Positions 40,531-42,907 of a stretch of 64,000 nucleotides of DNA are shown piece after piece. Under the pieces are notes generated by a model. That model did not search any database. It was given only the letters and a program-made list of their open reading frames with translations, and was not told where the DNA came from. The DNA is from Mycobacterium sp. ITM-2016-00317. GTDB taxonomy: Bacteria > Actinomycetota > Actinomycetes > Mycobacteriales > Mycobacteriaceae. The stretch covers positions 310,001 through 374,000 of the forward strand of contig NZ_CP134399.1 of NCBI RefSeq assembly GCF_002968295.1. The letters are read 5' to 3'. A program made the translations under genes and the position numbers. Numbering within the stretch: position 1 is the stretch's first letter; the number at the start of each line of letters is the position of its first letter.

Positions 40531-41028
40531 TTATCCGAAGCGTACTCCCGGATTCTGGTTACGTACTGTGACTGCGGTGAGATCGTCTGTGCGGCGGCGG
40601 ATACGCCCGTGCGGGGTGACGACCGCGAGGCCCTCCCTGGCCCAGTACTCGAATCCGCCGAGCAGTTCCCGCACCCGCCGATAGCCCATGTCGCTGAGTG
40701 CGTGGGCCGCCTTGGTGGCGCCGTTGCAGCCCGGCCCCCAGCAGTAGACGACGATGTCGGCGTCGAGGTCGGGCAGTTCGGTGCGGGCGCGGTCGCGCAG
40801 TTCGGCGTTGGGCAGGTGCCGCGCGGCGGGCAGATGGCCCTGGTCCCAGGCGTCCCTGGACCGGGTGTCCACGACGATCGGCGGGGTCGCGGTGGCGCGC
40901 GCCAGCACCAGGTCGGCGGCGTCGATCTCGTAGGCGAGGCGGGCGGCGAAGAATGCGCGGGCGGCCGAGGTGTCCGGGATGGGTGAGGTCTCCGGTGTGG
41001 GTGAGGTCTCCGGTGTGGGTGAGGTCAT
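40531..41028 (-). CDS. Rhodanese-domain sulfurtransferase
   Basis: 166 residues. After an N-terminal SPTPET-repeat tail and a helix, a rhodanese domain contains IVVDTRSRDAWDQGHLPAA and the active-site loop VYCWGPGCNGATKAA (Cys nucleophile). It ends with GGFEYWAREGLAV. Divergent from the Lrp/AsnC regulator gene; such pairs are common in actinobacteria and suggest control by that regulator. ATG 41028 is the first Met after the divergent gap. Confidence 0.88.
   Translation of the reverse strand: MTSPTPETSPTPETSPIPDTSAARAFFAARLAYEIDAADLVLARATATPPIVVDTRSRDAWDQGHLPAARHLPNAELRDRARTELPDLDADIVVYCWGPGCNGATKAAHALSDMGYRRVRELLGGFEYWAREGLAVVTPHGRIRRRTDDLTAVTVRNQNPGVRFG
40979..41028. repeat. 18-bp tandem repeat at the 5' end of the rhodanese gene
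   Basis: The unit GGTGAGGTCTCCGGTGTG occurs twice with a partial third and fourth, encoding the SPTPET repeats of the rhodanese N terminus. The unit is a multiple of three, so copy-number change would keep the frame. Confidence 0.75.
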
Positions 41029-41121: not shown

Positions 41122-41583
41122 ATGCCTGACGATCAGCGGATCACCTTGGACCGCACCGACGAAGCCATTCTGCAGGCACTGCAGACCGACGGTCGGATCA
41201 GCACCGCGGACCTCGCGCGCACGGTGTCGCTGTCGCCGAGCGCGACCGCCGACCGGGTGCGCAGGCTGGTCGATCTCGGCGTGATCACCGGCTATACCGC
41301 GACGGTGTCGGCGGGAGCGCTGGGGTACTCGATCACGGCGTTCGTGCGGCTGGCCTATCCGTCGGGCAACTACAAGCCGCTGCACGACCTGCTCGAGGTC
41401 ACCCCCGAGGTGATCGAGGCACACCACGTGACGGGCAACGACTGCTTCATCCTCAAGGTGCTGGCGCGGTCGATGCCCGACCTGGAACGCATCACCGGCC
41501 GGATCGCGACGCTGGGCTCGATCACCACCAGCGTCGTCTACTCGAGCCCGCTCACCGGCCGCAGACTCAGCCCCGCCCAGTGA
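41122..41583 (+). CDS. Lrp/AsnC-family transcriptional regulator
   Basis: 153 residues: N-terminal winged HTH (LDRTDEAILQALQTDGRIST, then SPSATADRVRRLVDLGVI) and a C-terminal RAM domain (YTATVSAGALGYSITAFVRL, VTGNDCFILKV). Binds an amino acid as effector in this family. Divergent from the rhodanese gene, 93-bp shared promoter. Confidence 0.92.
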   Translation: MPDDQRITLDRTDEAILQALQTDGRISTADLARTVSLSPSATADRVRRLVDLGVITGYTATVSAGALGYSITAFVRLAYPSGNYKPLHDLLEVTPEVIEAHHVTGNDCFILKVLARSMPDLERITGRIATLGSITTSVVYSSPLTGRRLSPAQ

Positions 41584-41635: not shown

Positions 41636-42118
41636 TCAGGCGGCGTGCACGTCGCGCAGACCGACCGCGCCGTGCAGCCCCGAGCAGTTGATGCACCCCA
41701 CGCAGGCGATGCAGTCCTCGCAGTCGACACATCCCACGCACGCCTTGCACCGCACGCACCCGATACACCCCAGGCACGCGAGGCATTTGGCGCACGCGAT
41801 CGACAACACCACCAGGATGCAGTTGGCGACGGCCGCGCTGCCCGCCGTTGCGATCGACTGTGCGACGGCCGCGCTGCCCGCCGTCGCGATCGAACCCGCC
41901 ACGGCGGCGCTACCCGCCGTCGCGATCGATCCTGCGACCGCGGCACTGCCCGCCGTCGCGATCGAACCCGCCACCGCGGCGCTGCCCTGCGTCGCCACCG
42001 ACCCCGCGACGACGTAACTGTCCTCGGTGCGCAGGGAACGCACCACCGCGCGCGACGGGTCGTCGTCAGGCCCGCTCATGCGGATCACGTCATCGCCGCT
42101 TGTTTCCTCTTCGCGCAA
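41636..42118 (-). CDS. Repeat protein: 12-residue Ser/Ala repeats plus (Cys-x-x)13 tail
   Basis: 160 residues from TTG 42118, or 147 from ATG 42079; start uncertain. After an acidic N terminus come five near-identical 12-residue units (GSIATAGSAAVA), which have hexapeptide periodicity and suggest a beta-solenoid. A hydrophobic step (CILVVLSIA) leads into 13 Cys spaced exactly every third residue (CAKCLACLGCIGCVRC... to CINC), then GLHGAVGLRDVHAA. It starts 36 bp after the sdhB stop on the same strand, so it is probably the last gene of the sdh1 operon. No family recognised; a metal- or FeS-binding, or a post-translationally modified, protein is possible. Confidence 0.72.
   Translation of the reverse strand: MREEETSGDDVIRMSGPDDDPSRAVVRSLRTEDSYVVAGSVATQGSAAVAGSIATAGSAAVAGSIATAGSAAVAGSIATAGSAAVAQSIATAGSAAVANCILVVLSIACAKCLACLGCIGCVRCKACVGCVDCEDCIACVGCINCSGLHGAVGLRDVHAA
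41826..42005. repeat. 36-bp tandem repeat, five units, coding
   Basis: Five 36-bp units (phase start 41826, GCGACGGCCGCGCTGCCCGC...) encode the GSIATAGSAAVA repeats of the Cys-rich protein. Units differ by a few bases, mostly at third codon positions, so the peptide is better conserved than the DNA. Confidence 0.85.
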
Positions 42119-42158
42119 GCGCTCATGCCGGTTATCTGCTCTTCGCGCAAGCGCTCAT
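42107..42158. repeat. Exact 20-bp direct repeat between sdhB and the Cys-rich gene
   Basis: CTCTTCGCGCAAGCGCTCAT occurs at 42107-42126 and 42139-42158, offset 32 bp. The second copy spans the sdhB stop; the first contains the TTG start of the Cys-rich protein. Either a local duplication or paired sites. Confidence 0.8.
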
Positions 42159-42907
42159 CGCCGGAACAGCTTGTCGCCCAGCCACACCAGCGGGTCGTAC
42201 TTGCGGTCGGCGGCACGTTCCTTCATCGGGATCAACGCGTTGTCGGTGATCTTGATGTGTTCGGGGCACACCTCGGTGCAGCACTTGTTGATATTGCAGA
42301 AGCCCAGGCCGTTGTCCTCCTGCGCCTCCTCGGCGCGGTGGCCGTGCGTGTCGAGCGGATGCATGTCCAACTCGGCCTGGCGCATCAGATAGCGCGGACC
42401 GGAGTACGCGGCCTTGTTCTCCTCATGATCGCGGATCACGTGGCACACGTTCTGGCACAGGAAGCACTCGATGCACTTGCGGAACTCCTGCGAGCGGTTC
42501 ACGTCCTCTTGGGCCATCCGGTACTCGCCCGGCTGCAGGTCCTTCGGCGGCATGAACGCCGGGATCTCCCTGGCCTTCTCGTAGTTGAACGACACGTCGG
42601 TCACCAGGTCGCGCATCACCGGGAAGGTGCGCAGAGGCGTGACGGTGACGACCTCGTCCTCGCCGAACGTCGACATCCGGGTCATGCACAGCAGCCGGGG
42701 CCTGCCGTTGATCTCCGCCGAACACGATCCGCACTTGCCGGCCTTGCAGTTCCACCGCACCGCCAGATCCGGCGTCTGAGTGGCCTGCAGCCGGTGGATG
42801 ATGTCCAGCACGACCTCGCCGTCGTTGACCTCGACGGTGAAATCCTGGAGTCCGCCACCGGTGTCGTCGCCGCGCCAGACCCGCAGCTTTCCCTGATAGG
42901 CAGCCAT
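42155..42907 (-). CDS. sdhB: Succinate dehydrogenase 1 iron-sulfur subunit
   Basis: 250 residues (Rv0247c 248). [2Fe-2S] ligands in WNCKAGKCGSCSAEI with a later Cys (LLCMTR); [4Fe-4S] and [3Fe-4S] ligands in CIECFLCQNVCH and NKCCTEVCPEH. Passes electrons from the FAD subunit to the membrane subunit. ATG 42907 starts 2 bp after the sdhA stop. Confidence 0.95.
   Translation of the reverse strand: MAAYQGKLRVWRGDDTGGGLQDFTVEVNDGEVVLDIIHRLQATQTPDLAVRWNCKAGKCGSCSAEINGRPRLLCMTRMSTFGEDEVVTVTPLRTFPVMRDLVTDVSFNYEKAREIPAFMPPKDLQPGEYRMAQEDVNRSQEFRKCIECFLCQNVCHVIRDHEENKAAYSGPRYLMRQAELDMHPLDTHGHRAEEAQEDNGLGFCNINKCCTEVCPEHIKITDNALIPMKERAADRKYDPLVWLGDKLFRR

What the first reader, a model, noticed from the sequence alone, without database searches (positions are those of the whole stretch)
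41636..42118. Sdh1-operon protein made of a Ser/Ala solenoid and 13 Cys at every third residue
Seen: five 12-residue repeats (GSIATAGSAAVA) with six-residue periodicity, then Cys at strict period three for 13 positions, the gaps being small or hydrophobic residues. Period three and period six fit one continuous beta-solenoid in which one face becomes all Cys. Known: metallothioneins cluster CxxC but not with this regularity; thiazole/oxazole peptide precursors are rich in Cys/Ser/Thr with Gly. Inference: a metal or FeS store, a redox wire, or a modified peptide. Location 36 bp after sdhB suggests co-expression with a dehydrogenase rich in iron-sulfur clusters. I recognise no described family.
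Basis: partly seen in the sequence, partly recalled or inferred. Interest (0 to 1): 0.8.

Follow-up and report, generated by a model that had tools for sequence, protein, structure and literature searches.

The report
Cysteine-cored solenoid protein of mycobacteria
A small, largely overlooked protein of environmental mycobacteria and some other actinobacteria is predicted to coil into a rod whose last turns carry only cysteines inside; its conservation shows that it is real and used, perhaps to hold metal ions, but its function is untested.

Summary
The minus-strand ORF (160 codons from TTG 42118, 147 from ATG 42079) holds five 12-residue Ser/Ala repeats, then 13 cysteines at strict period three. 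It is a real gene: pooled pN/pS is 0.16 (Cys part) and 0.22 (repeats), and 89 of 198 Mycobacterium genomes match, a few only as fragments. Relatives occur in other actinobacterial genera and families. In 125 distinct proteins, 1566 of 1569 cysteines (last 110 residues) share one phase; 84 have an uninterrupted run of exactly 12. Two AlphaFold2 models show a beta-solenoid, with moderate confidence. The 12-residue unit with one constrained residue in three fits the coil of Tenebrio antifreeze protein, here with an all-Cys core for about three coils. The sdhB link does not carry the function: it marks one (weakly supported) group; elsewhere the gene sits beside an SDR gene or alone. No YcaO in this genome. 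Pfam and NCBIfam have no match above cut-off; PHROG 15341 (function unknown) matches the Cys array. Best guess, unproven: a prefolded thiolate rod that binds soft metal ions.

The parts
   Evidence: selection in this frame
42005..42079 (-). charged, variable N-terminus (residues 1-25 from the ATG)
   Evidence: coordinates reckoned by hand from the ATG
41825..42004 (-). five 12-residue solenoid coils with Ser/Thr/Ser/Val at every third residue (residues 26-85)
41795..41824 (-). hydrophobic join NCILVVLSIA (residues 86-95), with an in-phase Cys at 87
41684..41794 (-). Cys array, 13 Cys at strict period three (residues 96-132)
   Evidence: (18-bp period, 41684-41776)
41639..41683 (-). conserved tail SGLHGAVGLRDVHAA (residues 133-147)
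42155..42907 (-). sdhB (250 aa, Sdh1 locus), the upstream neighbour here; gene name recalled from the sequence
41122..41583 (+). Lrp/AsnC-type regulator gene (name recalled), convergent neighbour downstream

Best explanation
A conserved, largely unannotated actinobacterial protein that folds as one continuous beta-solenoid of 12-residue coils with one residue in three pointing inward. Coils with Ser/Thr/Val cores come first; then about three coils have Cys at every inward position; a conserved tail (GLRxAVGLRxVH) caps the rod. Shown: the gene, its selection, the periodicity, the distribution. Predicted: the fold. Inferred: the protein stays in the cytosol, its thiols are reduced, and the prefolded column of four inward thiols per coil binds soft metal ions (Cu(I) or Zn-like) as a buffer or store. 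It would work like, without being related to, the copper storage proteins, which line a preformed core with Cys.
For: Selection on this frame. 1566 of 1569 Cys in one phase and a modal uninterrupted run of 12 Cys, 84 of 125. Ten of the columns from C82 to C115 in A1 are Cys in all or at least 90% of 30 rows, with no gap in the array. Two models with strands of three residues every six residues. Repeat unit and indel peak of 12 residues. Described inward positions 2, 5, 8, 11 of the 12-residue beetle coil (PMC8038014, passages): four inward thiols per coil here, where the beetle uses one cross-core disulfide. Csp1 holds 13 Cu(I) in a preformed Cys-lined core (PMC7558416, passages).
Against: No metal gene stands out beside it; no RicR/CsoR, IdeR or Zur-like box enriched upstream of 50 first-gene loci; presence is independent of DUF326 copper storage domains (12 of 29, 13 expected, Fisher p 0.69). 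Four of five AlphaFold2 models per run have pLDDT of only 48-57. Tenebrio antifreeze protein is one of many tied shapes for model 1 and is not listed for model 2. Cytosolic place judged by eye only.
Confidence: 0.42

Rival explanations
1. Same fold, but the Cys column is structural or a thiol switch: cross-core disulfides stiffen the rod or form under oxidative stress.
For: The beetle 12-residue coil is held by one disulfide per coil (PMC8038014, passages); period-three Cys in 125 proteins.
Against: Only one of two opposite Cys pairs per coil could cross a core of that size (inference); no signal peptide seen by eye, so probably a reducing place; SigE/H-like boxes not enriched upstream.
Confidence: 0.2
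2. A scaffold: the almost uncharged solenoid packs against membrane, DNA or itself, and the Cys are a tight core filler without metal.
For: Between residues 21 and 97 the window protein has no charged residue; on average 1.2 charged residues in the 60 before the array over 125 proteins, none in 47. Pentapeptide-repeat proteins such as MfpA appear among the shape matches.
Against: Does not say why Cys rather than Val or Ala is kept at every inward position of the array.
Confidence: 0.2
3. An Fe-S or electron-transfer accessory of Sdh1.
For: Directly after sdhB in the window and in 20 of 125 distinct genes, with ATGA overlap in L034 and L039.
Against: 105 of 125 distinct genes are not after sdhB; sdhB adjacency fits one change on the tree, weakly supported.
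Confidence: 0.06
4. Precursor of a ribosomally made, modified peptide.
For: Cys- and Ser/Thr-rich sequence with a conserved tail.
Against: No YcaO in the own genome, while the same search rang in 5 of 14 control genomes; no constant neighbour that could be a maker. Other makers were not searched for.
Confidence: 0.05
5. A cysteine-responsive translation attenuator like the polycysteine leaderless short ORFs of mycobacteria.
For: Cys-rich reading frames with that role are cited for mycobacteria (Canestrari et al. 2020, seen as a citation in PMC9094748, passages).
Against: Non-Cys columns and the tail are conserved; roughly 110-150 residues long; in many loci it follows the operon gene rather than preceding it.
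Confidence: 0.04
6. A repeat-rich DNA stretch with an accidental open frame.
For: Tandem 36-bp and 18-bp DNA repeats; almost absent from predicted protein sets.
Against: pN/pS 0.16 and 0.22; ATGA overlap with the stop of sdhB or the SDR gene in eight loci.
Confidence: 0.01

Closest known systems
PHROG 15341 (phage proteins, function unknown)
   Same: Long (Cxx)n arrays; the window protein matches it at E 4.5e-8 over residues 81-134
   Different: The phage proteins matched here have another N-terminus (W..D.N.N..W type) and arrays of up to 53 Cys, with polar residues between the Cys; common descent is not shown, the periodicity alone may give the match
Tenebrio-type beetle antifreeze protein (12-residue beta-helix)
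   Different: No TxT face, no Cys/Ser/Cys/Ala core but Ser/Thr/Ser/Val and then all Cys; tied with unrelated helices and not listed; no sequence match in PDB below E 0.068
Copper storage proteins Csp1/Csp3 (DUF326; this equation recalled)
   Same: About a dozen Cys pointing into a preformed core (PMC7558416, passages): a work-alike only
   Different: Four-helix bundle against a predicted beta-solenoid; no DUF326 match in the window protein or the own genome
Metallothioneins (MymT, SmtA)
   Same: Small Cys-rich protein
   Different: No match in Pfam or NCBIfam; strict period three and a predicted fold of its own; metal binding unknown
Pentapeptide-repeat proteins (MfpA, Qnr)
   Different: Period five (recalled), not three and twelve; no Pfam match

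Membership tests
Tenebrio-type antifreeze proteins | 12-residue tandem coil with inward residue every third position | tested here: met
   sequence level only, the inward direction is predicted
Tenebrio-type antifreeze proteins | TCTxSxNCxxAx consensus with TxT ice-binding face | tested here: not met
   repeats are GSxATxGSAAVA; consensus from PMC8038014 passages
Tenebrio-type antifreeze proteins | same fold | tested here: inconclusive
   rank 2, tied; not listed
Copper storage proteins (DUF326) | DUF326 domain | tested here: not met
   no such match; own genome 0
Copper storage proteins (DUF326) | binds many Cu(I) in a preformed Cys core | not testable with these tools
   needs purified protein
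Metallothioneins | match to a curated metallothionein model | tested here: not met
Thiazole/oxazole-modified peptides | YcaO cyclodehydratase in the genome | tested here: not met
   0 in the own genome; controls 5 of 14
PHROG 15341 | (Cxx)n array matching the profile | tested here: met
   E 4.5e-8, residues 81-134 of the window protein
PHROG 15341 | N-terminal W..D.N.N..W segment of the phage members seen here | tested here: not met
   the match starts at profile position 30; the window protein begins MSGPDDD and has no Trp
Polycysteine attenuator ORFs | short ORF with runs of Cys codons ahead of the regulated gene (partly recalled) | tested here: not met
   Cys spaced by two residues; the window gene lies after sdhB
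Pentapeptide-repeat proteins | five-residue repeat | tested here: not met

The most novel reading that the evidence does not exclude
A genetically encoded tube in which every inward position for about three solenoid coils is a thiol, holding a continuous metal-thiolate (or cluster) column: a prefolded inorganic rod, a new architecture for storing or conducting, present in actinobacteria and, longer, in phage proteins of PHROG 15341.
Probability: 0.3. Interest if true: 0.9.

Novelty: new variant of a known kind. Interest (0 to 1): 0.7.

Why it matters
A gene of roughly 110-150 codons under strong selection matches in 89 of 198 Mycobacterium genomes, yet three word-based searches of 5.8 billion predicted proteins returned 17 distinct proteins in all, several of them fragments or low-complexity matches (one search scored a capped list): gene callers seem to pass it over. 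If the all-Cys core is right, it is a new way to place a dozen thiols in a preformed rod, and simple to express and test.

Tried and rejected
Sdh1 partner: rejected as the general function. SDR partner: rejected as obligate; close SDR relatives (E<=1e-80, not proven orthologues) are in 152 of 198 genomes against 89 of 198 for the family, and in the own genome the SDR match is at 3.66 Mb, the family gene at 0.35 Mb. YcaO-made peptide. Replacement of copper storage proteins: 12 of 29 DUF326 genomes have the family, 13 expected. Upstream boxes (patterns recalled) in 50 first-gene loci: none enriched; the controls were simple two-base shuffles and no de novo motif stood out. Plasmids: 3 records, partial matches under 60% identity, none Mycobacterium. 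Phage records: 16, all under 60% identity. Viral contigs with the family profile: 34 pattern matches, none confirmed. PDB sequences: best E 0.068. Defence library: none for the three proteins scanned. Foldseek in PDB: 0 matches at E<=0.001. Left-handed hexapeptide helices were not noticed among the listed fold matches, which proves nothing.

Literature: searches aimed at such proteins gave one unrelated paper or none. Searches were seen as listings; from them only passages of PMC9094748, PMC7558416 and PMC8038014 were read.

Rows dropped: of 165 family genes 127 were unique for the substitution test; pairs outside 75-98% DNA identity and genes without the tail anchor or with fewer than 90 codons before it were left out, giving 56 and 53 disjoint pairs. 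One search, an earlier run with duplicate genes, is replaced (it gave lower ratios). Cys counts use the last 110 residues of 125 distinct proteins. Of the matches, 80 places were fetched with wide flanks; about a dozen short, weak or second matches were not. The indel count also has many lengths of 1-11, taken as alignment noise near the N-terminus; 12 is the highest single count (151 against 90 for length 1), but slippage of the 36-bp DNA repeat would give the same peak. Neighbour genes come from my own codon-score caller, which misses the family gene itself in many loci.

Full report
What is there. The ORF lies on the minus strand at 41636-42118, 36 bp after the end of sdhB if it starts at the TTG; the ATG at 42079 is the other likely start, and neither has a clear ribosome-binding site. 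The 147-aa version has a charged N-terminus of 25 residues, five 12-residue coils (26-85), a hydrophobic join (86-95), 13 Cys at strict period three (96-132) plus one in-phase Cys at 87, and a tail SGLHGAVGLRDVHAA.

It is a gene. The window protein matches in 89 of 198 genomes of the genus at E<=1e-3, in most of them once; some matches are short fragments and one has an internal stop. Profile searches in wider samples gave 20 of 301 in the family at E<=1e-6, 13 of them of the same genus; 34 of 397 in the order at E<=1e-4, 21 of them of the same genus, 4 strong ones elsewhere (G331, G366, G415, G427) and 9 weak ones; and 10 of 396 in the phylum at E<=1e-6, 6 of them of the same genus. Of the four distant phylum hits, two are relatives by eye (L347, L348), one is low-complexity (L350) and one showed no array (L349). 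The samples overlap. The scan of named genomes confirmed 121 stretches, of which 80 were kept; hosts include Mycolicibacterium chubuense, M. rhodesiae and M. sphagni, Mycobacterium gordonae, M. szulgai and M. gastri, three Pseudonocardia species and a Williamsia. In disjoint pairs pooled pN/pS is 0.16 for the Cys region (56 pairs) and 0.22 for the repeats (53 pairs); other frames give 0.31 to 2.99, the lowest being the antisense frame that shares the wobble position. The start codon overlaps the upstream stop (ATGA) after sdhB in L034 and L039, and after an SDR gene in L079, L089, L100, L102, L104 and L108.

It is one period-three structure. In the 70-row alignment A2, over residues 31-147, mean column entropy in the S/T/V/C phase is 0.50 bits against 1.56 and 1.09 in the other two, and none of 100,000 permutations reached this. 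Within the last 15 residues alone the phase is not the most conserved (1.24 against 0.49 and 0.81), so the tail is conserved for other reasons, although its in-phase residues are hydrophobic (L, A, L, V). Across 125 distinct proteins 1566 of 1569 Cys (last 110 residues) are in the dominant phase; uninterrupted runs have 12 Cys in 84, 13 in 11, 14 in 11, and 7 to 11 in the other 19. Indels between relatives have their highest count at 12 residues.

Context. Among 125 distinct genes 20 follow sdhB, 26 follow the SDR gene, 27 precede it and 52 have neither. On a tree of these proteins (136 columns, many unresolved forks) the sdhB label needs one change (branch support 28), SDR downstream 4, SDR upstream 6, and all labels together 11 against a shuffled mean of 63.4. 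The gene keeps its place within groups, but its operon partner differs between them, so no partner explains it. Close relatives of the SDR are more widespread than the family (152 of 198).

Function. Best guess: a cytosolic, prefolded thiol rod that binds soft metals. Csp1 is the work-alike: the apo-protein is rigid and 13 Cu(I) sit in its core (PMC7558416, passages). No neighbour, upstream box or co-occurrence tried here supports copper in particular. The cytosolic place rests on the eye; no signal predictor was run. I give 0.42 to metal binding and 0.2 each to a thiol switch and to a metal-free scaffold.

Known families. Pfam and NCBIfam: nothing above cut-off. PHROG 15341, function unknown, matches residues 81-134 at E 4.5e-8, and also all nine other proteins scanned with it, eight phage-contig (Cxx)n proteins and P0019. 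These may share only the periodicity. The kind (beta-solenoid) is known; a core made of Cys alone is, as far as these searches go, a new variant of it.

Noticed in passing
L228, L233, L239, L240, L259, L285, L288, L290 (viral contigs): Phage-contig proteins with 17 to 53 Cys at period three after a W..D.N.N..W-type N-terminus; L240 carries four such ORFs.
   Followed up: partly
P0019 (242 aa, unnamed source): A protein with a very long (Cxx)n array behind a different N-terminus, ending GKGLRDVHL like the mycobacterial tail.
   Followed up: partly
window 42107-42161: Short imperfect tandem repeat between the end of sdhB and the ORF; the TTG start lies inside it.
   Followed up: no
G172, G194, G060 (genomes of the same genus): Short or broken matches of the family (55 and 31 residues; an internal stop in G060), in G172 and G194 beside the SDR gene: the gene seems to be decaying there.
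   Followed up: no
L192, L194: MAG contigs titled Bifidobacterium breve carry the family gene with mycobacterial-type neighbours; probably wrongly binned.
   Followed up: no
window 40534-41028, minus strand: A rhodanese-like gene (name recalled from its sequence) beyond the Lrp-type gene, about 600 bp downstream of the Cys protein.
   Followed up: no
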